NCBI RefSeq assembly: GCF_900112935.1
Contig: NZ_FONM01000018.1
Location: 1-59,234 of the forward strand
DNA from: Trichococcus pasteurii
GTDB taxonomy: Bacteria > Bacillota > Bacilli > Lactobacillales > Aerococcaceae
DNA length: 59,234 nucleotides
Reading direction: 5' to 3'
The first letter of the stretch is position 1; the number at the start of each line of letters is the position of its first letter. Under the pieces are notes generated by a model that saw only the letters and a list, made by a program, of their open reading frames with translations, had not been told where the DNA came from and did no database searches. Below are positions 10,722 through 33,290 of the stretch, piece by piece. Made by a program: the position numbers and the translations under genes.

Positions 10722-10767
10722 CTTATATTTCACCCCCTGGATTTTATGATAGAATTTCTTGTAAAAA

Positions 10768-10880
10768 CAAAAAACTCTATGTCACCTAGACATAGAGGAT
10801 CCATAAATATCTCATTGGATTCTTCCTCGGCAGGTATATTAAGGCTCGCACCCCCTGCTGTCTTCGGTAAGCATATATTA
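10768..10880 (-). promoter_or_regulatory. L10 leader with attenuator
   Basis: The minus-strand RNA carries the L10-leader hallmark: GCAGGGGGTGCGAG, then CCTTAATATACC and TGCCGAGGA. It is followed by a terminator stem (CTCTATG / CATAGAG, 10775-10797) and a TTTTTTG run. In this family, excess L10(L12)4 binds the leader and favours termination. The assignment rests on recognisable sequence and structure. Confidence 0.85.
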
Positions 10881-10881
10881 A

Positions 10882-10918
10882 CCTCAACGACTATACCAAA
10901 GATAGTCGCTGAGGTCAA
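10882..10918 (-). promoter_or_regulatory. rplJL promoter lying inside an inverted repeat
   Basis: The minus strand has -35 TTGACC (10913-10918), a 17-bp spacer and -10 TATAGT (10890-10895). The same bases form a 13-bp inverted repeat (CCTCAGCGACTAT / ATAGTCGTTGAGG) with one G-T pair, 12 nt after the rplA stop. A T run follows the repeat only on the plus strand, so it is not a normal rplA terminator. Confidence 0.5.
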
Positions 10919-20868: not shown

Positions 20869-22746
20869 TTATTGACCGATGCCCGGTCTATAGATTGATT
20901 TTGTCTTACCGTACCACCAGTTGTCAAGTTTCTTCTGGATCCACGGAATCACATAGTAGTCCAACCCGAAGGCTCTGCCTGATCCGTTCATCAAGGCGAT
21001 GGCCACCGGAATGAACCACATGTTCACCCAGTAGAACATACCGGATAAGGAGAACGAAATCACCAATGCGATCGTTGCGGCATTCGCCAAGAAAGTGAAC
21101 AAGCCCGCGATGATCGCCAAACCGATCAACAACTCGACGATCGTCATGAATTTCTGGAAGAACAAGGCCATTTCCGGATTCGGGATCATGACCTGCATGA
21201 TGCTGTTGAACCACTCAGGCGCTTCTTTGAAGATCATCATCGGCTCTTCCCCGTAGGCATAGCTCAAACCGAATACCGGATGGCTGACAGCAGCAGCCGT
21301 GTCGGTTACCGCTTCGGATGCCCCGGTTGTCGCTTCCTTCAGCCAAGCGAACGGCAGGACGATTTCATCGCCGAACCAAGAAGTCGTGCCGTACAAGCCG
21401 TAGATCTTCTTGACCGCTTCCCATGTCCACATGCTGCCGTAGAAGACGCGCAACGGCAGTGCCCAAAGCACATTGCCCAAGCGGGACAAGTGACCACGGA
21501 AGATGTTGCGTTTTTCTTTGATATGGAAGAATTCATGATAAATGTATTGCACGAAATAATAACCTGAACCGATCGTCATAAAGTAGAACAAGTTCACCAT
21601 ATGCTTCACGAGCATCGCTATGAAGCCGCTCAAATGGATTTTGTCCATTAAGTAGGCAACGCCATAACGGGAACCGATCGAAATCATGAAACCTTGGTAT
21701 GTGCCTTTGTGTTCGTGTTTCTCTGTTCCTTCGATAGAGGCGATGATGTTGGCGGCCGCTGTGTGTCCCGTTTGTTCGGCGGATTGCACGATTTGCGGTA
21801 CTGGTGCGTTGTTTTTATCAGGCTCTTCGTAATAAACCAAGTCACCTGCCAAGTAGACGCCTTCGGAATCTTTCGCTTCCATGTATTTATTGGCTACCAA
21901 ACGACCCGCTCTTGCTTGCTCAATACCATAAGCGGCTGCGTCCGTGTTGGCTTTTACGCCTGCTGTCCAGATCAGCGTGTGTGTCGGAATCACCGTTCCA
22001 TCAGACAACTCGACGCTATCCTTCTTGACGTTTGCGACCCCGTTGCCTTTGATGATCTGGATGCCTTGCTTGCGCATGTATTTTTCTGCTTTTTGTTGTT
22101 CTTTTTCGGTTACGACACCCAGAATCTGCGGTGCGGCTTCAATCAGATAAAGACTGAATTCAGCCGGATCCAATTTGTTGGCTCTAGCCAATTGGTCTTT
22201 CCATTCCATCAAGTCACCGACAAGTTCCACACCAGTAAAACCAGCTCCGCTGACTACTGCAGTCAACATTGCTTTGCGTTTTTCATCGTTGTGTTCATTT
22301 GAAGCTGCTTCGACTGTATCCTGGATATGACGGCGAATTTTGTTCGCATCTTCCCATGACCACATCGTGAAGCCATTCTCATCGACACCGGGGACGTTGA
22401 ACGTATTCGGCTCCCCGCCCATCGCCAGGATCAGGTAGTCGTAGTTGAAGCTGTGGCTGCTGGTCGTCACGACTTTCTTCTCACGGTCCACATGGGTCAC
22501 TTCGTCCGTGATGATGTCCACGTTCCGATTACGGCTGAACAGTCGTTGCAGATCGTATTGGATTGCATCGGGCTGCACACGCCCCGCTGCCACCTCATGC
22601 AACTCGGTCATGTATGTCTGGTAGGAATGTTTGTCGATCAAGGTGATCAGGACATCCGGATTTTTCTTGAAATGTCGGGACAATTTCTTCGCGGCGGCCA
22701 CACCGGCGAAACCTGCTCCCACAACCACAATATTCTTTTTACTCAT
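20869..22746 (-). CDS. ndh2: type II NADH dehydrogenase with C-terminal membrane extension (Ndh2)
   Basis: 625 aa. The first about 400 residues form a flavoprotein NADH:quinone oxidoreductase: FAD-binding GAGFAGVAAAKKL at the N-terminus, a second dinucleotide fold GAGFTGVELVGDLME, and the AGDL motif. Ordinary Ndh enzymes stop near residue 400-450. The extra about 200 residues contain several hydrophobic segments (LVISFSLSGMFYWVNMWF among them), the hallmark of the EET-specific Ndh2 that passes electrons to demethylmenaquinone. It probably has its own promoter at 22821-22849. Confidence 0.93.
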   Translation of the reverse strand: MSKKNIVVVGAGFAGVAAAKKLSRHFKKNPDVLITLIDKHSYQTYMTELHEVAAGRVQPDAIQYDLQRLFSRNRNVDIITDEVTHVDREKKVVTTSSHSFNYDYLILAMGGEPNTFNVPGVDENGFTMWSWEDANKIRRHIQDTVEAASNEHNDEKRKAMLTAVVSGAGFTGVELVGDLMEWKDQLARANKLDPAEFSLYLIEAAPQILGVVTEKEQQKAEKYMRKQGIQIIKGNGVANVKKDSVELSDGTVIPTHTLIWTAGVKANTDAAAYGIEQARAGRLVANKYMEAKDSEGVYLAGDLVYYEEPDKNNAPVPQIVQSAEQTGHTAAANIIASIEGTEKHEHKGTYQGFMISIGSRYGVAYLMDKIHLSGFIAMLVKHMVNLFYFMTIGSGYYFVQYIYHEFFHIKEKRNIFRGHLSRLGNVLWALPLRVFYGSMWTWEAVKKIYGLYGTTSWFGDEIVLPFAWLKEATTGASEAVTDTAAAVSHPVFGLSYAYGEEPMMIFKEAPEWFNSIMQVMIPNPEMALFFQKFMTIVELLIGLAIIAGLFTFLANAATIALVISFSLSGMFYWVNMWFIPVAIALMNGSGRAFGLDYYVIPWIQKKLDNWWYGKTKSIYRPGIGQ

Positions 22747-22820
22747 TAGGTAGTCTCCTTTTTATCTATGTTCAGCGCATCACTGTGCCTAATCACTTAT
22801 TTAAAATAACCACATTTATA

Positions 22821-22850
22821 AGTATAGTGTATTTGTGAATAATTGTCCAT
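22821..22850 (-). promoter_or_regulatory. ndh2 promoter with Rex-like operator
   Basis: The minus strand has -35 TGGACA (22844-22849), a 17-bp spacer and -10 TATACT (22821-22826). An 18-bp segment (22833-22850) reads TTGTGAATAATTGTCCAT on the plus strand: one half matches the Rex consensus TTGTGAA exactly and the other half is weak, about 13 of 18 positions overall. Control by the NADH/NAD sensor Rex is plausible but unproven. Confidence 0.45.
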
Positions 22851-22974
22851 GCAAAACCTGGAAGTAGTATGAAAAAGTTCTTCTACGAGCATTTTTTCAT
22901 CTTTTTCACTTTGTTTTCTTCCTCACGCGTCGGCTTAAAATCTTTCGCATTGGAGAGGTTCCCGCAATAAAACG

Positions 22975-23562
22975 CTAGTGTTTTTCTTCCCGATAGACCA
23001 GTGAAGCCTCATACCACGCTTTCGTCAATTTACTTTTAGCAGACTCCTCCAATTGGAATTGGCGGATCGTCGAGACATGCTCCAACAAGTAATTCGCCGC
23101 CACCCCGACCGCGATCCCCGAGAAGATGCCGGTCACGGAAAGGATCGGCAAGTAGAGCATCACACTGAACGATTGCGCAATCAGGCTCGCCATCGCCAAC
23201 TGGCCGACATTATGCAGAATCCCCCCGGCCGCGCTGATGCCGATCATGCTGACCCGCTTCGGACCCAAAAGCCGGACCAAAAGCATCCCGCCATAACTCA
23301 AAAAGGCCCCCGCAAAACTGTAAAGGAAGGTCGATAACGTCCCGCCCAACAACGTCGAGATCAACAGCCGCATCCACACGACCTTCAGACTGTCCTTATA
23401 AGGCAGCGTAAAGATCGCCAACAAGGTGATGATGTTCGCCAACCCCAGCTTCGCACCCGGCGCAAACGCGAACGGAAACGGAATCGCCCGCTCCAGCATC
23501 GTGATGACCACGCCCTGCGCAGCCAATAATGAAATATAGATCAAACGTTTATTTTTATTCAT
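22975..23562 (-). CDS. eetB: Gx transporter family membrane protein (EetB-like)
   Basis: 195 aa polytopic membrane protein, about five to six helices. It matches the Gx transporter/heptaprenyl diphosphate synthase component I-like family, for example PGAKLGLANIITLLAIF and a Gly-rich AAGGILHNVGQLAMA segment. In Listeria the EetB protein is in the EET locus and contributes to electron transfer, perhaps with EetA. It is the most upstream gene of the minus-strand cluster, 228 nt before ndh2. Confidence 0.85.
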   Translation of the reverse strand: MNKNKRLIYISLLAAQGVVITMLERAIPFPFAFAPGAKLGLANIITLLAIFTLPYKDSLKVVWMRLLISTLLGGTLSTFLYSFAGAFLSYGGMLLVRLLGPKRVSMIGISAAGGILHNVGQLAMASLIAQSFSVMLYLPILSVTGIFSGIAVGVAANYLLEHVSTIRQFQLEESAKSKLTKAWYEASLVYREEKH

Positions 23563-23764
23563 AGCGTTATCCTTGCTTTTTTGTATTCGTATTCAAATTG
23601 TAGCACAATTGAGCCAAAGAAATGTAGGTCCAAAATATAAAAAATAGGTTACTTGCAATAGTAAATTCCAGTTTGTAAGACTAAATTCCGCACCGGAACC
23701 GATGAAAAGAGAAATGGACAAAAAATGGCTAACTTAAACTCGAAATTTTGACAGATAATTATTC

Positions 23765-23793
23765 TTGAGAAGCATTTTCTGGTATTATATTCT
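23765..23793 (+). promoter_or_regulatory. fabV promoter
   Basis: -35 TTGAGA (23765-23770), a 17-bp spacer and -10 TATTCT (23788-23793), 30 nt before the fabV start. Confidence 0.5.
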
Positions 23794-23822
23794 TATGACA
23801 TTTTAATGGAGGAAAATCAAAC

Positions 23823-25019
23823 ATGTTGGAATTTAAACAAAATATACGGGGAAATGTGGCCCTTGGTGTAAACCCGCTTGGATGCAAGCAGGAAGTATTG
23901 AATGAAATCGACTATGTAAAAAACAAAGGAACTTTTGCAGGTCCGAAAAAAGTCTTGATCATTGGTGCTTCATCAAGCTACGGTTTAGCCACTCGGATCA
24001 GCCTGGCCTTCGGTGCGGGAGCAGATACAATCGGCGTTTCTTTTGAAAAAGGACCGAAAAATGAGCGGAATCTCGGCACAGCCGGTTGGTACAACAATAT
24101 CGCTTTCCGTGAGGCTGCCGAAAAAGAAGGCCTGATCGCCAAAAACTTTGTGCAGGACGCCTTCAGCCACGAAAGCAAGCAAGAAGTCATCGAGTATATC
24201 AAGAACGAGTTCGGGGGCAAAGTGGACCTGGTCGTTTATAGCTTGGCAAGCGGCAGAAGGACAGATCCCGATACCGGAGAGACGTACACTTCCGCAATCA
24301 AAGCCCTTGGGGAGCCAGTGGTTGGCCCTAATATCAACATGCAAAATCAGGATTTCTATACGGAAACGTTGGAACCTGCAACAGAGGAAGAAATCGCCGG
24401 TACGCTTAAAGTTATGGGTGGCGAAGACTGGCAGCTATGGATGGAAGCGTTGAAAGAAGCAGATGTATTGGCTGACGGGGTTCTGACGACCAATTACTCT
24501 TATTTGGGAACAGAGCTGAACCGTCCTTACTACGGTGGCGGCACCCTTGGTCTAGCTAAAGCAGACTGTGATGAAAAGGCGAAGACTATCAATGCGTTGT
24601 TGGCTGACATCAACGGAAAAGCCCAGATTGTGGTGGCTACTGCCGTGACTACTAAAGCAAGCTCCGTGATTCCGTTCTTCCCTGTTTATTGCATCGGTCT
24701 TTACAAAGTCATGACGGAAAAAGGCACCCACGAAACACCGATCATGCACATCGACCGCATCTATCGCGACATGGTTTATGGTACTAAGGCTGAGTATGAC
24801 GAAGCTGGCCGCCTGAGACCGGATAGCTGGGAACTTGACAGCGACACGCAAGCCGAAACGAAAGCCCTGATCGAAAAACTGAATGGAGAAAACTTCACTT
24901 CCGAAATCGCGGCTTATGACCTCCTTTACAAAGAGTTTTCAATTTTAAGTGGCTTCATGGTTGATAACTATGTAGAGCAAGAAGTTACGATCGAAGATTT
25001 GAAAGCATTGGAATATTAA
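23823..25019 (+). CDS. fabV: trans-2-enoyl-ACP/CoA reductase FabV
   Basis: 398 aa, typical for FabV/TER enzymes, which reduce the enoyl double bond in fatty acid synthesis with NADH. The cofactor site is near KVLIIGASSSYGLA and the YSLASGRR segment is diagnostic. The catalytic Tyr-x8-Lys pair is seen in YGGGTLGLAK. FabV is naturally insensitive to triclosan-type FabI inhibitors in the species tested. GGAGG lies 10 nt before the ATG. It is transcribed away from the EET cluster. Confidence 0.94.
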   Translation: MLEFKQNIRGNVALGVNPLGCKQEVLNEIDYVKNKGTFAGPKKVLIIGASSSYGLATRISLAFGAGADTIGVSFEKGPKNERNLGTAGWYNNIAFREAAEKEGLIAKNFVQDAFSHESKQEVIEYIKNEFGGKVDLVVYSLASGRRTDPDTGETYTSAIKALGEPVVGPNINMQNQDFYTETLEPATEEEIAGTLKVMGGEDWQLWMEALKEADVLADGVLTTNYSYLGTELNRPYYGGGTLGLAKADCDEKAKTINALLADINGKAQIVVATAVTTKASSVIPFFPVYCIGLYKVMTEKGTHETPIMHIDRIYRDMVYGTKAEYDEAGRLRPDSWELDSDTQAETKALIEKLNGENFTSEIAAYDLLYKEFSILSGFMVDNYVEQEVTIEDLKALEY

Positions 25020-25523: not shown

Positions 25524-28500
25524 TTAAATTATTCCACCTACTCCTTTAAACTTATCTACAAACGCAGAGATTTTCTGAAAAACGCTCTGTTTTTTCTTTA
25601 AATATTTAGGATTAATCGGGCTCATTTTAGGAAGAATTTCATTTAGTTCCGTTCCATTTTGACTGGCATATTCTCTTTTTAAAGAAGCAAGGATGTATCT
25701 CTTTGCAGCGTCTACATTAAGTTCTTCAGCATTAATCAATTCTTTTGCTTCTCTCATTTGCTCAGTCTGAGCAAATGAGAAGAAGGCCTCAATAATGCTT
25801 GCTTTATCTGGAATCTTGTCTAAATCTGTTTGGTTGATAAAATCAACTACCAAGCTTTCTTTTGCACGATTCCCCACACTAGATCGAATTAAACGACGTA
25901 CCTCTTTAACTAAAACTTCTTTATCTTTTACTTTTTTGTTTTTTTCGAAAATCAATTCAAGAATGTAATCCAAGTTTATCTCTTGTGATTTTAAAAGGTC
26001 TACTTCAAAGACAACATCATCCCAATCAATCGTGGAATATTCTTTTTCTTTACCCGCTTTTTCGCGTCGAAGCCAATCACGGATATCGTTATAAGTAGAT
26101 CGATAATCTTGTATAATTCTTTCTTCAGGTATTTTAATCTCTTGCATGGCAGCGATATCTTCATCACTTAGATAATGATTAGCTTTGAACTCCTCCAAAT
26201 CTTTTGGATTACTCATATCTACCAATTGCAATGCTTTTAAGCTAGAAAACTCATCGTAGTTTTGTAAGACGTTTTCGACACGAAGATATTCACCAAAGAG
26301 TTTGGCGAAGTCTTTTTTATCTTTTTCAGTGACAATGTCATCAACATTCGAGAAACAAGCTTCTAACTCCTTAACTACATCTACATATCCACGACGGGCT
26401 TCACCAGTAGCAATGTCAGTAAAACCTTCCATATATTCTTTATAACTTTTTTCAAGCACTACATTTTTGGTGTTATTGTCTCCGAAAAGAGTAATTGCAT
26501 CAATAGTCGCTTGTTCTAAATTTCTGAAAGTAACAACATTTCCAAATGTTTTCGTAGAATCATAAATGCGGTTAGTTCTTGAAAAAGCTTGCATCAAACC
26601 ATGGAAACGAAGGTTTTTATCGACAAATAGTGTATTCAGTGTTGGCGCGTCAAAACCTGTTAAAAACATCCCAACCACTATCAAGAGATCAATCTCTTGC
26701 TTTCTTACTCGATTTGCAAGGTCACGATAATAATTTTGAAACTCTTTACTATCTACCCCATAATTGGTTTTGAATATGGCATTATAATCTTTAATTGCCA
26801 AAGTTAAAAACTCTTTGGCACTGCTATCCATAGCAGAAGGTTCAAAGGTTTCATCAAGGATTTCACCTATAGCACTTTGCTCTTCATTGGCAGCAAAAGA
26901 AAAGATTGTCGCGATTTTCAAAGGTTTTTCGCTATCTTTTTGTAAGTCGCTTAATGATTCATAATAAAGTTTGGCTGCATCAACACTACTCACAGCAAAC
27001 ATAGCATTAAACCCTTTGCCATTAGCATGAGTACGATGCGTCTTTATTCTAAAATTGTTCAAGATATATTGTGATACCTCTTTAATTCGTTCAGGATGTA
27101 ATAAAGCTTCTTTTGTTTCTGCCGCTGATAGCTTTTTTTCATCTTGTTCCATTTCAATAGACTTGAACTTTGGACGCACATCGTTATAATCTACTTTGAA
27201 TTTTAAAACCTTTTCATCTCTAATTGCATCAGTAATAACATATGAATGTAATTCTCTGCCAAATACTGTAGCAGTCGTATCAGATCCTAAAGCGTTTTCA
27301 GGGAAAATAGGCGTGCCAGTAAATCCAAATTGATAATACTGTCTGAATTTTTCCGTAATATTCTTTTGAGCTTCACCAAACTGCGAACGGTGAGCCTCAT
27401 CAAAAATAAATACGACTTGCTTATTATATATAGGTAAATCTGTTTCATTTTTGATCAGTTTGTTCAGCTTTTGAATAGTTGTGACAATGATTTTATTATC
27501 ATCTTTGTCTATGTTACGCTTCAAACCAGCTGTATTTTCTGAACCATTAACACTATCAGGAGAAAAACGTTGATACTCTTTCATCGTCTGATAGTCTAGA
27601 TCTTTTCTATCTACCACAAAAAATACTTTGTCGATAAACTCCAGCTCAGTAGCCAAACGTGCTGCTTTAAAACTAGTCAATGTTTTACCTGAACCTGTTG
27701 TATGCCAAATATATCCACCACTTTCGATGGATCTCCATTTTTTAGCTTGGTATGAACTTCTGATTTTCCACAAAATTCTTTCTGTTGCCGCTATTTGATA
27801 TGGTCGCATGATAAGTAAAGTATTGCTCGAATCAAAAACAGAATAATGTAGTAACATATTCAATATTGTATTTTTCTGAAAAAATGTTGCTGTGAAATCC
27901 CTCAAGTCTTTGATCAGAGTATTGTCTGATTTTGCCCAATTCATAGTAAAATCAAAACTGTTTTTATCTCGTTTAGTCGTATTAGCAAAATAACGGCTAT
28001 CAGTCCCATTAGAAATCACGAAAATCTGTAAATACTTAAATAGAGAGTTCTCAGAATTAAAGCTCTCTTTACTATATCTATGTACTTGATTAAATGCTTC
28101 TCGAATGGCGATACCACGCTTCTTCAATTCTACTTGAACCAATGGTAACCCATTGACCAATATCGTCACATCATATCGGTTAGCCTGAGTTCCTTTTAGT
28201 TCAAATTGCGAAATAACTTGCACTTTATTTTTTGCAACATTATTTTTATTTACTAGATAAATATTTTGAATATGCCCATCATCAAAGACAAAGTCATAAA
28301 TATAATCATTATGAATTCTGCGCGTTTTATCTATGTGACTGTCGCTTGGTTTATCTAAAAACTGTTCACAAAATCTAATCCATTCAGCTTCTGTAAACTC
28401 CACATTGTTAAGGTCTTGAAGTTGCACACGAACATTAGCAAGCATTTTTTCAGGAGTATTTAAACTTGGTAGATGTTCATACCCTTGATTTACTAAATCT

Positions 28501-28622
28501 TGAATCAGTTCTCGTTCTAACTCGGCTTCTGTTTGATAACCAAATCCTTGTTGATCTATCTTGCTATATTTGTCTAAAACTATAAAATTATTTGATTCTG
28601 CAATGGGTTTGTAATCGCACAT
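25524..28622 (-). CDS. hsdR: type IC restriction endonuclease subunit R (PrrD/HsdR)
   Basis: 1032 aa motor and nuclease subunit. The nuclease domain holds Asp151, Glu165 and Lys167 ([10 protein letters not shown]...QVELKKRG), the same positions known in EcoR124I. The helicase Walker A is HTTGSGKT (Lys313) and the DEAH box is FIFDEAH (about 407-411). Overall sequence, as I recall it, follows EcoR124I closely, placing it in type IC. It cuts DNA after translocation when unmodified sites are met. It lies 31 nt downstream of prrC, as prrD does in E. coli. Confidence 0.96.
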
Positions 28623-28653
28623 TAATTTCCCTCCAAACTAAAATTTCTTCATC

Positions 28654-29814
28654 TTATTTAAACTGATAAGTTTCATTAATTTTTTTCAATAAATAACCTA
28701 ATACACGTTTATCATCATCTGATAATTCAGCGACTTCATCTCCTGAATGCTTTGAATGACTTGAGATATTAATAATTCTAGTTTCATAAGGTTTTGGACT
28801 ACCATCTGTAATTCTAAATAAAAGTTCTCCCCAATTGTCATACCCTAAAAATGTTGATGTTTTCTCCAAAATATTTCTAAAAAAATTAAAATGATACTTT
28901 TTTAGCTGTCCTGTTTCAATAGCATTTTCAATTTCACTTTTTAAGAAAAGGTGATAAGAAAACGGTGCATCATTAGATTGAGTATTTAATTCATATTCAC
29001 CAATTTCTATTTTTTTAAGAAAATATTTTTTGAATGTACCCTTCTTTAGCTCATTATGAAGCACATTATAGAATAAAGGGTTATGCGTAGTTACAATAAA
29101 CTTCAAATCCGAATTACTCGATTTAATCAATTGAGCTAAATCTACTGCTAACTCAATCAAGTGATTATCATCTAATGAGCTTACAGGGTCATCTATAAAT
29201 ACATACTCCAGCTGATCAAACTGATTTGTTTCTCGATCATTTGGTTCAGCGACATTTAAAACATCAATAACTTGTTCAAGTAGAGAATAGAAAACACACC
29301 ATATAAAGTTGCTTTCTTCTCCTTTTGAAATTTTAATGTTATTAGAACGCTCATCATTACCACGCTCGTACGAGAAAGATACTTCTGTAAAAGCTTCTAC
29401 TGTGATATTTTTCCCATTCTTATTCTCATTAGTATATTCTTCATTAAAATATGGTGTTAGTTTTTCATCAGTATAGTGTTGAAAATTTGAAATAATATTT
29501 CTGTCTTGTCCTTGCTCTTCAAAAATCCATTTTGTAAATGAGTTAGCATGAATTTTAAGCTTTGGTTCAGCATCAAACTCTAAATCATTGTCCCAATAGA
29601 ACAAATCTTCCGTAAAAGCATTGTAATAAAGGATTTTTTTACTAACTACTTCTGATTCCTCTAACTCCGTACCACTATCTATTGTAGGAGCTACTAACAA
29701 TCTGAATTCTCGTGAAAGCCTTGTTTTTCCAGTTCCATTAAAAGCATAAATCAATTGAACTATTTTATTATTATCTTTTAACTGTTGTGCAATATCAGTT
29801 AATGAAGCACTCAT
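28654..29814 (-). CDS. prrC: anticodon nuclease PrrC (tRNA-Lys specific)
   Basis: 386 aa; E. coli PrrC is 396. The N-terminal ABC-type ATPase has Walker A FNGTGKTR (Lys30), the PrrC-specific [19 protein letters not shown], a signature-like [10 protein letters not shown], Walker [13 protein letters not shown] and the H-loop TTHNP. The C-terminal nuclease part has Arg313, Glu317 (FFRNILEKT) and His353 (SSHS), matching the E. coli catalytic residues Arg320, Glu324 and His356. PrrC stays silent in complex with the restriction enzyme and cleaves tRNA-Lys when a phage inhibits restriction. It starts 2 nt after hsdS and precedes hsdR, exactly as in prrABCD. All key residues look intact. Confidence 0.93.
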
Positions 29815-29815
29815 A

Positions 29816-31084
29816 TTAATCCTCTACCTCCTCTTTCGGAAAGTTAAGAAGCATATTACGATAATATTCATATTGTTTTTTACGCAATTCGATTTCACAA
29901 GGTAAACACTCAGTGATTGAGGATACCAAGGCGGCGAATTTATCAAGAATTGATACGATACGCTCTTGTTCGGAGAGTGGCGGGATAGGGATTATTATTT
30001 TTGATATATCGGTAGCTGAAACATCAATAACCTTTGTCCCTTTTGCATATTTTCTTTTCTGACATGCAAACATCTCTGTTTGTGTAAAATAAGCAAAGTA
30101 CTTGCCTAAAATCTGATTTGATGGTTTGAAAATTGTTGCGTGTCCGCCAGTAACAGCTTGCACTTTACCAAGATAAACAACTGCTTTGCCAACATCTTCT
30201 AAATTTTCACTCGTATTTGTTATAACAACATCACCAGTATTTACTTTTTTTAATTTTTGAGCCGTTTCATATGAAACGAAAGATTTTGTTTCTGTCGTAA
30301 ATGTACCATAATATGTGTAAATCTGGCCGTAATGAATTGCCGGAACTCCAATTTCTGTGAAATCTGATTTTAGTAAACCATTACCACGAACTAACTCGCC
30401 AACCTCACACAACGGCTTCCACTCAACTTCACCCTCTTCAAAAGTCAACATTTTATCACGATAATAAGTGTGTTGTTTTTTGCGAGCTGTAAGCTCTGCT
30501 GTAAGCTCTGCTGTTAGCTCTGCTGTAAGCTCTGTGAAAGTGTCTAAAATTCGGACGATTTCTTCTTGTACTTTAAGGGGCGGGATGGGGATTTGGAGTT
30601 TTTTAAATCTTGCTTTAGACACATTAAAACGAGTAACTCCACTTGCAGTTTTTGCAATTTCATCACGTATTAAACGACTACGAAACAGGTATTTTGAGAA
30701 CTCGGGAATTATCTGAATATCCTCATTAAATCTAACCCCAAAAGAAAAGCTGTTCAAAAATACCGAACCATCAAACTTTGTAGTAACGGAAGAAGACATT
30801 CCTGCTTCGTCTGCTGTTTCTGATGATCCCGTAAATAATACATCGCCGTATTTTACTTTATGTTGATTTTCGGAAGTAGAAACTTTAACGGATTCAAGTT
30901 TTTCAAAATCAACATCAATGTTACTAAAAATGTTTTTATAAGAAATGTAATAAGCATTGCCATTTTCAAAGTCAATTTTGCTTTTACCTGTAAGTCCACC
31001 ATAGATTTCTGAAATTTCCCCCAAAAGCTTCCATTCTATCTCAACCCCATCAAGTAATTTCTCCATAAAATTCAGCTTTATCAT
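29816..31084 (-). CDS. hsdS: type IC specificity subunit HsdS (PrrB)
   Basis: 422 aa with two target recognition domains separated by a conserved spacer. The start resembles EcoR124-type proteins ([18 protein letters not shown]). The central spacer holds (ELTA)x4 at residues 185-200, before [13 protein letters not shown]; the second conserved region ends [17 protein letters not shown]. In EcoR124 the number of TAEL units sets the gap between the two halves of the recognition site. The start codon overlaps the hsdM stop (ATGA); a second ATG (31066) is possible. The recognition sequence cannot be read from the protein. Confidence 0.93.
30486..30533 (-). repeat. four 12-bp tandem repeats in hsdS linker
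   Basis: Four head-to-tail copies of GCTGTAAGCTCT (plus strand), the third with one base change. They encode (ELTA)x4. Gain or loss of a unit keeps the reading frame and changes linker length by four residues. Confidence 0.9.
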
Positions 31085-32628
31085 GATTCAATCACCTCAA
31101 TAATCTCATCAATTTCGGCTCGAAGCTTATCTATCTTTTCAACGGTCGTTTTTATTTCTACCTTCAGTTCATTGATGTCAACGACTTCTCTTGTGTCTTT
31201 GGCTTCTACATAAGAACTTACAGATAGAATATAATCATTTCGAACAATTTCATCATAATCAACTGATGTTGCAATATGATCAATATCTTCTTTACTGTCA
31301 AACATTATCATAATTTTTTCAATATGTTTATCGGTAAGTACGTTATTATTAGTTTCTTTTTTATAGAACTCTTCACCACTTGCATCGATAAACTGAGTTT
31401 TATTATCGGTTTTGTGCTTAGAAAGAATTAAAATATTAACAGCAATTGAAGTCCCGTAAAAAAGGTTAGGTGCTAATGATATAACAGTTTCAACAAAGTT
31501 ATTATCGATTAGGTACTTCCTAATTTTCTGTTCAGCACCACCGCGGTAAAAAATTCCAGGAAAACAAACAATAGCCGCACGACCTTTGCTTGAAAGATAA
31601 CTAAGGGCATGAAGTACAAAGGCAAAATCCGCTTTAGACTTTGGAGCTAATACTCCTGCAGAGGCAAACCTTTCATCATTAATAAGTGTTGGGTCTTCAC
31701 TTCCAATCCATTTCACTGAATAAGGTGGATTAGATACAATAGCATCAAAAGGTTTTTCATCACCAAAGTGAGGGTCTAAAAGAGTATTGCCCAATGCAAT
31801 ATTAAACTTATCATAGTTGATATTGTGTAAAAACATATTCATGCGAGCAAGGTTGTAAGTTGTATGGTTGATCTCTTGTCCATAAAAACCATCTTCGATA
31901 ATATGCGCATCAAACTGTTTTTGTGCTTGTAAAAGTAGTGAACCCGAACCAGCTGCTGGATCATAAATTTTATTAATTGTTGTTTGCTTGTGTATTGCCA
32001 ATTGTGCAATAAGTCTAGAGACAGACTGGGGTGTAAAAAACTCACCGCCAGATTTCCCCGCGTTAGCCGCATAATTAGAGATTAGAAACTCATAAGCATC
32101 ACCAAAAAGATCAATATGATTTTCTTCAAATTTACCAAAATCAAGCCCTTCAACACCTTTAATTACAGAAGCTAATCGACTATTTTTATCTTTTACAGTA
32201 TTCCCCAATCTATTGCTTGTAGTGTCAAAATCGCCGAATAATCCCTTAATATCTAGTTCAGATGGATAACCATTAGCCGAACTTTCAATTGTAGTAAATA
32301 TTGCAGCTAAATCCGTATTCAAACTTTCATTCGTATTGGCAGTTTTCGCAATATTAAAAAACAACTGACTAGGATATATAAAATAACCTTTTGTTTTTAT
32401 TGCATCCTCTTTAATTTCATTAGTTATAATATTATCGGAAAGTTGTGCATAATTGACACTGTCATCGCCACCTTCTATGTAATTAGAAAAGTTTTCACTA
32501 ATAAAACGGTAAAAAAGAGTTCCTAAAACATATTGTTTAAAATCCCATCCATCTACAGATCCACGGACATCATTGGCTATTTTCCAGATTTGAGATTGTA
32601 ATTTGGCTCGTTCTACTGCACTTGACAT
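31081..32628 (-). CDS. hsdM: type IC modification methyltransferase HsdM (PrrA)
   Basis: 515 aa N6-adenine methyltransferase subunit. The SAM motif is [13 protein letters not shown] and the catalytic motif is SNPPYS. The N-terminal segment [20 protein letters not shown] matches EcoR124I-type subunits as I recall them. With HsdS it forms the M2S methylase that protects the host. ATG 32628 follows GGAGG by 7 nt; an in-frame ATG further up lacks a ribosome site. First gene of the operon. Confidence 0.96.
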
Positions 32629-32724: not shown

Positions 32725-33290
32725 TTATAGATATACTTGCCACTTGTATATAATATTCTGGCTTAGCTAATAAAAAATACTTTTTGCAGTATTTTTTCCC
32801 TGACCACAGTACGTCAAATCTTTTTTGGACATCCACACTCAAATGTTTTTTCAACTTATAATAATAGTGAACTCGATCCGACTATTGGATCATAGAGAGA
32901 CCTAACATCGGACATCTTGGCAGCAATTTGGGCCATTACTTCACTCACTTGATGTGGGGTACAGAATTCTCCATCCCTCTCCCCAGATTCCATCGCAAAC
33001 TGACCGATTAAATATTCTTAGGCATCACCAAGCACATCGCCTTTTTGTAAAGTGACCATGTTCAAATCAGTGAACAATAGAATGAGTGATTTAATATTTT
33101 TGCTGCGTTCTTTCAAATTGCTTCCAAGAGCCGTATCCGTCAAATCCAGAGTTAATCTTGAAAATAACCCTTTGAAGTCGCTCGAATCACCCGCATCGGC
33201 AATTGTACGTTCAAAATTATTCAAACTTATACTGGCCAACTGTATCTTTGATTCAGGACTTATTTTTAGCATAATCAATAAGTATCTCAT
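32725..33290 (-). pseudogene. decayed hsdM of another type I system
   Basis: The minus strand encodes pieces of an HsdM in several frames. One begins LFSRLTLDLTDTALGSN and ends GDVLGDA, followed by a TAA stop and then EYLIGQFAMESGERDGEF, CTPHQVSEVMAQIAAK and LYDPIVGSSS. A frameshift leads to LKKHLSVDVQK, and a further one to YCGQGKNTAKS. These correspond in order to the conserved centre of HsdM, but the SAM motif is degraded (IVGSSS for the usual GSGS) and both ends are missing. It differs from the intact hsdM next door, so it is a relic of a different type I system. Confidence 0.8.

What the first reader, a model, noticed from the sequence alone, without database searches (positions are those of the whole stretch)
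25524..32628. Complete prrABCD-type locus: type IC restriction enzyme guarding an anticodon nuclease
The order hsdM-hsdS-prrC-hsdR is that of the E. coli prr locus. PrrC keeps all ATPase motifs and the three nuclease residues (Arg313, Glu317, His353), and HsdR keeps Asp151/Glu165/Lys167. This would be a two-layer phage defence: restriction first, then tRNA-Lys cleavage if a phage blocks the enzyme. The close resemblance to Enterobacteria-type proteins, in an AT-rich island between core genes of a Gram-positive, suggests horizontal transfer.
Basis: partly seen in the sequence, partly recalled or inferred. Interest (0 to 1): 0.85.

Follow-up and report, generated by a model that had tools for sequence, protein, structure and literature searches.

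The report
Restriction enzyme guarded by tRNA-cutting toxin
This is an ordinary, apparently intact copy of a known phage defence in which a DNA-cutting enzyme carries a dormant tRNA-cutting partner that is thought to be released if a phage disables the enzyme; it belongs to a Gram-positive lineage of the system rather than being a recent import from E. coli-type bacteria.

Summary
Window 32628-25524 (- strand) is a four-gene operon hsdM-hsdS-prrC-hsdR, all open. HsdM, HsdS and HsdR are EcoR124-type (type IC). The 386-aa protein matches the PADLOC PrrC model at E = 1.6e-145. Its Arg313/Glu317/His353 align with EcoPrrC Arg320/Glu324/His356 and are invariant in 105 of 105 sequences; Asp282 aligns with the wobble-contacting Asp287. 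PrrC loci are widespread: 545 matching stretches in 84,980 species genomes, and a type IC hsdR follows prrC in 104 of 104 relative loci.

The operon does look foreign to this strain: AT-rich, not found in 12 other genomes of the genus (two of them half-complete), and beside a decayed HsdM remnant.

Verdict: new member of a known kind. tRNA-Lys cleavage and activation are inferred, not shown.

The parts
31081..32628 (-). hsdM (prrA-like), type IC DNA methyltransferase, 515 aa; motif I DPAAGSG at 223, motif IV NPPY at 300
   Evidence: NCBIfam TIGR00497 hsdM E=1.7e-193; EcoR124 M subunit 7bst_D, 917 bits; motifs
29816..31084 (-). hsdS (prrB-like), type IC specificity subunit, 422 aa, two target domains
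   Evidence: Pfam Methylase_S, two stretches; EcoR124 S subunit 7bst_A E=9.7e-48
30491..30526 (-). (TAEL)3 repeat in hsdS (protein residues 187-198); the number of repeats sets the recognition-site gap in type IC enzymes, three repeats corresponding to 7 bp in EcoR124II
   Evidence: three TAEL copies from residue 187, coordinates counted from the hsdS start; rule from PMC3874165 passages
28654..29814 (-). prrC, 386 aa: ABC/Rad50-type ATPase head plus C-terminal anticodon-nuclease domain; triad R313/E317/H353; recognition-loop Asp D282
   Evidence: PADLOC PrrC E=1.6e-145; triad invariant in 105 of 105; alignment to the 396-aa E. coli protein; model and fold search
25524..28622 (-). hsdR (prrD-like), type IC restriction/translocase subunit, 1032 aa; nuclease D151/E165/K167; Walker A GSGKT 310, DEAH 408
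   Evidence: TIGR00348 hsdR; Pfam HSDR_N and EcoR124_C; EcoR124 HsdR 2w00_A, 1748.5 bits; motifs
32835..33179 (-). decayed remnant of another hsdM (37% identical to the intact HsdM over 118 columns, in-frame stops), just upstream of the operon
   Evidence: tblastn E=2.3e-19 against this segment alone, residues 126-241 of HsdM

Best explanation
The region is a complete PrrC guard locus of the E. coli prrABCD kind. HsdM and HsdS methylate host DNA at a bipartite site (gap predicted to be 7 bp from three TAEL repeats); with HsdR the complex translocates on and cuts unmodified incoming DNA. PrrC is made from the same operon, docks on the Hsd complex and is held silent. If a phage product blocks the restriction enzyme, PrrC is released by a nucleotide-driven change in its ABC head and its C-terminal nuclease cuts tRNA-Lys 5' of the wobble base, stopping translation and the phage. 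Shown here: gene content, order, coupling, intact reading frames and motifs, conservation and phylogeny. Inferred from the characterised homologues: complex formation, silencing, trigger, tRNA-Lys as substrate, expression. The operon belongs to a Bacillota lineage and sits in a variable spot of this strain's chromosome, next to the wreck of another type I system.
For: Gene order M-S-PrrC-R with stop-start coupling. PADLOC PrrC 1.6e-145. Type IC assignment of R, M and S by EcoR124 structures and Pfam EcoR124_C. The 396-aa E. coli protein L003 has D287, R320, E324 and H356 at exactly the published EcoPrrC positions; these align to window D282, R313, E317, H353 (published numbers). The triad is invariant in 105 of 105, D282 kept in 103 of 105, and a 15-residue block Y63-D77 almost invariant. 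104 of 104 relative loci have hsdR after prrC. Published: S. mutans and H. influenzae PrrC have nuclease activity; a PrrC 35% identical to EcoPrrC still targets tRNA-Lys and protects against T1 and T7. Single-contig genomes of the same genus (G001, G006) have tRNA-Lys(UUU) genes with the anticodon-arm stretch GACTTTTAATC.
Against: No activity is shown. The recognition loop ([10 protein letters not shown]) is two residues shorter than that of EcoPrrC (KYGDSNKSFSYH), and a review says substrates may vary because this region varies. Promoter-like sites in the region are no more than chance (37 found, 35.4 expected). The draft genome shows a tRNA-Lys(CUU) gene but I found no tRNA-Lys(UUU) gene: of 37 tRNA matches, 30 became loci and ARAGORN was run on 21 of these, which cover the others on the same stretches; four matches of 84-90 bases were not looked at. 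The one UUU-arm match in this genome is not called a tRNA. I take this as an assembly gap, not as absence. The 105-sequence sample was chosen by similarity, so conservation is overstated for distant members.
Confidence: 0.92

Rival explanations
1. The locus is a guarded type IC enzyme, but this PrrC subgroup cuts a different or wider set of tRNAs than tRNA-Lys(UUU), because its recognition loop differs from that of EcoPrrC.
For: Loop two residues shorter and of another consensus; a review states that substrates may vary. By a pattern count, 14 of 114 sequences have the EcoPrrC-type loop, 96 the window type and 4 neither (two members of the EcoPrrC-type clade, L097 and L104, were counted as window type, so the count is approximate).
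Against: The Asp that contacts the wobble base is kept (103 of 105); a PrrC 35% identical to EcoPrrC still targets tRNA-Lys.
Confidence: 0.2
2. The operon restricts DNA but PrrC is silent or inactive in this host (for example poorly expressed or inactivated by mutations not visible in motifs).
For: No expression data; promoter scan not above chance.
Against: All frames open and all motifs checked are kept; ribosome-binding sites and stop-start coupling intact. An unused gene tends to decay (general expectation), as the adjacent HsdM remnant did.
Confidence: 0.1
3. The 386-aa protein is not PrrC but another ABC ATPase inserted in an R-M operon (RloC, PtuA or AriA-like).
For: The predicted ATPase head resembles Rad50, SMC and PtuA heads; weak PADLOC matches to PDC-S06 and AriA.
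Against: PrrC model 482.9 bits against 45.9 for the next; at 386 aa no room for the RloC coiled-coil/zinc-hook insert; full-length 53% identity to the E. coli protein that carries the published EcoPrrC positions.
Confidence: 0.01
4. Recent horizontal transfer of the whole operon from Enterobacteriaceae.
For: Low GC, patchy distribution.
Against: PrrC and HsdR both nest among Bacillota with strong support; the Enterobacteriaceae copies are in other parts of both trees.
Confidence: 0.03

Closest known systems
E. coli prrABCD (EcoprrI + PrrC)
   Same: Same gene order, same type IC enzyme class, same nuclease triad and wobble-contact Asp, three TAEL repeats as reported for EcoPrrI.
   Different: 53% identity in PrrC (against L003, which I take to be EcoPrrC or nearly so from its length and residue positions); shorter recognition loop; other host group, where the T4 peptide Stp would not be the expected trigger (inference).
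Streptococcus mutans PrrC (reported in reviews and as unpublished results)
   Same: PrrC of a lactic-acid bacterium with reported anticodon-nuclease activity (PMC2610378 introduction and passages; PMC3014915 section 33).
   Different: Its sequence was not compared here; no named S. mutans locus was fetched.
Enterococcus casseliflavus pFYY063-optrA-70K and Vagococcus bubulae prr loci (L002, L012)
   Same: Nearest named operons by HsdR (90%) and HsdM (91-92%), same order.
   Different: PrrC 75% and HsdS 37% identical; the first is on a plasmid typed as conjugative.
PrrC170 of Klebsiella quasipneumoniae
   Same: PrrC plus type I enzyme, shown to defend against T1 and T7 and to target tRNA-Lys (PMC11555353 passages).
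   Different: Reported 35% identical to EcoPrrC; not compared with the window by sequence here.
RloC
   Same: ABC ATPase with an Arg-X3-Glu ... His nuclease.
   Different: Longer (658-897 aa), with zinc-hook coiled coil, rarely linked to R-M, excises the wobble base (PMC2610378).

Membership tests
PrrC anticodon nuclease | Catalytic triad Arg-X3-Glu ... His in the C-terminal third | tested here: met
   R313, E317, H353 align to E. coli R320, E324, H356; invariant in 105 of 105
PrrC anticodon nuclease | ABC ATPase motifs in the N-terminal two thirds | tested here: met
   Walker A, signature-like region, Walker B/D-loop, His244; Rad50/SMC/PtuA folds top the PDB search, with low TM-scores
PrrC anticodon nuclease | PrrC box, a 15-residue block in the N-terminal domain | tested here: inconclusive
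   A near-invariant 15-residue block [15 protein letters not shown] is at 63-77, but the passages seen do not print the box, so the equation is mine
PrrC anticodon nuclease | tRNA-Lys recognition region with the wobble-contacting Asp | tested here: met
   D282 aligns to D287; loop two residues shorter than in EcoPrrC
PrrC anticodon nuclease | No zinc-hook coiled-coil insert (separates it from RloC) | tested here: met
   386 aa, aligns full length to the E. coli protein
PrrC anticodon nuclease | Linkage to a type IC R-M operon, between hsdS and hsdR | tested here: met
PrrC anticodon nuclease | Cleavage of tRNA-Lys 5' of the wobble base when the R-M enzyme is inhibited | not testable with these tools
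   needs an assay
Type IC restriction-modification | HsdR/HsdM of the EcoR124 family with intact nuclease and methylase motifs | tested here: met
   TIGR00348, TIGR00497, EcoR124_C; EcoR124 chains are the best PDB matches; D151/E165/K167, GSGKT, DEAH, DPAAGSG, NPPY
Type IC restriction-modification | HsdS with two target domains and TAEL spacer repeats | tested here: met
   two Methylase_S stretches, three TAEL repeats
Type IC restriction-modification | Actual DNA specificity and cleavage | not testable with these tools
   needs methylome or digestion data

The most novel reading that the evidence does not exclude
prrC is an exchangeable guard cassette: on one conserved type IC backbone, lineages swap PrrC versions with different tRNA-recognition loops (or drop PrrC), so that what the guard cuts or responds to is selected independently of the DNA specificity it guards. 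The swapping itself is well supported by the conflict of trees; that the two loop types differ in substrate or trigger is the speculative step.
Probability: 0.3. Interest if true: 0.5.

Novelty: new member of a known kind. Interest (0 to 1): 0.3.

Why it matters
It is a clean Gram-positive example of a defence known mainly from E. coli. Its recognition loop is the commoner type in the sample (which was gathered by similarity and so leans its way), whereas the loop of the studied EcoPrrC is the rarer one, so it is a fair test case for whether the whole family cuts tRNA-Lys. The trigger in hosts whose phages are not expected to carry T4 Stp is an open question. Closely related restriction backbones with this PrrC, an E. 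coli-like PrrC, or none offer natural controls for what PrrC adds.

Tried and rejected
Transfer from Enterobacteria: not supported by PrrC and HsdR trees.

Other ABC ATPase families (RloC, PtuA, AriA): rejected; the fold search alone would not separate them.

PrrC in sequenced phages: no match in 50,697 phage records; 15 IMG/VR contigs do encode relatives, but I did not check whether these are real prophages.

prrC DNA in E. coli: 21 of 5,426 genomes have a DNA match, none over 80% of the query; a lower bound, as DNA search misses diverged copies.

A solved structure of PrrC by sequence: none at E <= 1. The model is only moderately confident (mean pLDDT 78.1, pTM 0.68); TM-scores of the 50 listed PDB matches are low (0.22-0.33 by query length), so it supports an ATPase head of Rad50/SMC kind and no more. 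The nuclease domain was not assigned by structure; its placement in the HEPN superfamily is from PMC3710099 (passages).

Promoter and terminator scan: not above chance. Rfam: nothing in the operon; an L10 leader at 10759-10885.

Pfam on the two small ORFs upstream of hsdM: no match, although tblastn shows the HsdM remnant.

A paper search for PrrC together with one genus name that I suspected from recall gave none. I did not establish the genus; the order is taken as Lactobacillales because two unnamed same-order genomes carry PrrC and HsdR identical to those of Vagococcus bubulae and Enterococcus rivorum. I saw no paper on prrC exchange in my listings, but of nine papers opened I read only outlines, passages or named sections, so this is no claim that it is unpublished.
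Full report
What is there. On the - strand, 32628 to 25524, lie four open genes in one direction: hsdM (515 aa), hsdS (422 aa), prrC (386 aa) and hsdR (1032 aa). hsdM and hsdS overlap by four bases, one base separates the hsdS stop from the prrC start, and 31 bases separate prrC from hsdR. The region is 31-35% GC, against 46-51% in the 2-kb windows on either side.

What the proteins are. HsdR matches EcoR124 HsdR from the PDB over residues 6-1031 (1748.5 bits), HsdM the EcoR124 M subunit (917 bits) and HsdS the EcoR124 S subunit (E = 9.7e-48); HsdR carries the EcoR124_C domain. This is a type IC enzyme. HsdS has three TAEL repeats; three give a 7-bp gap in EcoR124II, and EcoPrrI also has three (PMC3874165, passages). 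The 386-aa protein scores 482.9 bits with the PADLOC PrrC model against 45.9 for the next family.

Residue test. The E. coli protein L003 (396 aa, annotated 'anticodon nuclease') has Asp, Arg, Glu and His at 287, 320, 324 and 356, the positions published for EcoPrrC (PMC2610378; PMC3014915 sections 33 and 34). In the pairwise alignment they fall on window D282, R313, E317 and H353. Across the window plus 104 relatives (80 from genome contigs, 15 viral, 9 from annotated records; none dropped), R313, E317 and H353 are invariant in 105 of 105 and D282 is Asp in 103 of 105. A 15-residue block Y63-D77 is nearly invariant and is probably the published 'PrrC box', whose letters I did not see. The sample holds the best 80 of 545 matching stretches found with two conserved peptide patterns, so it leans towards conservation.

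Distribution and linkage. One scan of 84,980 species genomes gave 571 pattern matches, of which 545 encode a relative (not checked for being distinct loci, and limited by its two patterns). In 104 of 104 loci hsdR follows prrC, in 7 of them after an insert of 0.5-1.3 kb; 93 show the full M-S-PrrC-R order. The other 11 lack a full hsdM, or hsdM and hsdS; 10 of these begin within about 650 bases of a contig end, and one (L028) does not but gave no HsdM match. In 395 genomes of the window's order, 9 have PrrC at E <= 1e-30 and 19 have HsdR at E <= 1e-200; PrrC is directly beside HsdR in 8 of those 19, the window included, and the other 11 have no PrrC at that threshold. None of 12 other genomes of the genus has PrrC, two of them only 51% and 63% complete. 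Published work already lists 19 PrrC orthologues, all linked to type IC systems, with nuclease activity reported for S. mutans and H. influenzae, and PrrC calls in S. suis and S. thermophilus (passages).

Origin. The PrrC tree of 105 rows puts the window in a 19-row set of 15 Bacillota, 1 Fusobacteriota and 3 rows without a group (the window itself, an Enterococcus plasmid and a viral contig), SH-aLRT 99. The sixteenth Bacillota row, L062, is elsewhere (see below). The HsdR tree puts the window in a set of 6 (97/96) inside a clade of 22, all the Bacillota HsdR given to that tree (100/99.9). In the wider HsdR tree a Fusobacteriota row nests among them, and four Lactobacillales HsdR of about 67% identity (L178-L181) stand apart. 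PrrC identity is 53% to the E. coli protein, 69-76% to the Bacillota of its set, and 84% to viral contig L091 of unknown host. Origin from Enterobacteria is therefore not supported. The operon is still foreign to the neighbourhood: in genome G008 the conserved flanks (window 21515-23511 and 33584 onward) are separated by 1.25 kb, which by eye holds an ORF also seen in G003 that looks to me like a sigma factor (not searched). The window lacks that ORF there and has an extra fabV, the prr operon and a decayed HsdM remnant (37% identity over 118 columns, stops in frame). The remnant suggests that an earlier type I system stood here; that is inference.

A cassette that moves. Two recognition-loop types occur: KxGDSNKSFSYH (EcoPrrC type) and QxxDSPFSYH (window type). 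A pattern count gives 14 and 96 of 114, with 4 others (approximate, since two rows of the EcoPrrC-type clade, L097 and L104, were counted in the second class). Some E. coli strains carry the window type (L004, L009). Within the window's 6-row HsdR set, four operons have the window type (two of them, L012 and L173, with identical HsdR), one (G283, same family) the EcoPrrC type, and one (G110) none: there hsdS runs directly into hsdR. Oceanobacillus L062 has HsdR 94% identical to that of Lysinibacillus L013, yet an EcoPrrC-type PrrC. Holding the 21 Bacillota PrrC of both types as one clade is rejected (p-AU 1.3e-51), whereas the HsdR of the same 21 operons plus G110 are already one clade, and holding the HsdR of EcoPrrC-type operons together is rejected (p-AU 6e-8). 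L034, L040, L091 and the more distant order members L168-L172 and L178-L181 were left out of these two tests. The groups follow loop type but were set after a first tree had been seen, so the p-values are somewhat optimistic; the effect is large.

How it most likely works. By homology with EcoprrI/PrrC (PMC3014915 passages and sections): the Hsd complex restricts unmodified phage DNA; PrrC rides on it in silence; inhibition of the enzyme, with nucleotide signals, frees PrrC, which cuts tRNA-Lys. A PrrC 35% identical to EcoPrrC targets tRNA-Lys and protects against T1 and T7 (PMC11555353 passages), which supports the same target here and suggests triggers other than Stp. Same-genus single-contig genomes G001 and G006 each have four tRNA-Lys(UUU) and one tRNA-Lys(CUU) among the pattern matches. 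In the window's draft genome I found only the CUU gene, probably an assembly gap. None of the mechanism was tested here.

Structure. The AlphaFold model (58 sequences, mean pLDDT 78.1) has an ATPase head whose best PDB matches are Rad50, SMC/cohesin and PtuA, as expected; TM-scores are low and the nuclease domain is not identified by it.

Verdict. It is a new member of a known kind, with one evolutionary point (prrC exchange on a conserved backbone) worth following.

Noticed in passing
32835-33179 (-): Decayed HsdM fragment of a different type I system immediately upstream of the operon, with in-frame stops.
   Followed up: partly
23726-25019 (+): A second copy of fabV with about 97 bases of upstream sequence; the copy on contig C46 is in the genus-typical neighbourhood. 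The window copy is closest to that of G003 (96% DNA identity).
   Followed up: partly
23639-23727: About 89 bases matching repeats that lie within about 350 bases of contig ends in G002, G009 and G012 (about 90% identity), just upstream of the extra fabV; possibly the end of a mobile element.
   Followed up: no
A possible exception to exclusive linkage with type IC, not settled: its HsdR was not seen, and the L171 HsdM passes the same NCBIfam hsdM model as the window's.
   Followed up: partly
   Followed up: partly
L026, L060, L067, L069, L072, L087, L089: Insert of 0.5-1.3 kb between prrC and hsdR in 7 of 104 loci; content not examined.
   Followed up: no
10759-10885 (-): Ribosomal protein L10 leader (RF00557), the only Rfam match in the window at gathering score.
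   Followed up: no
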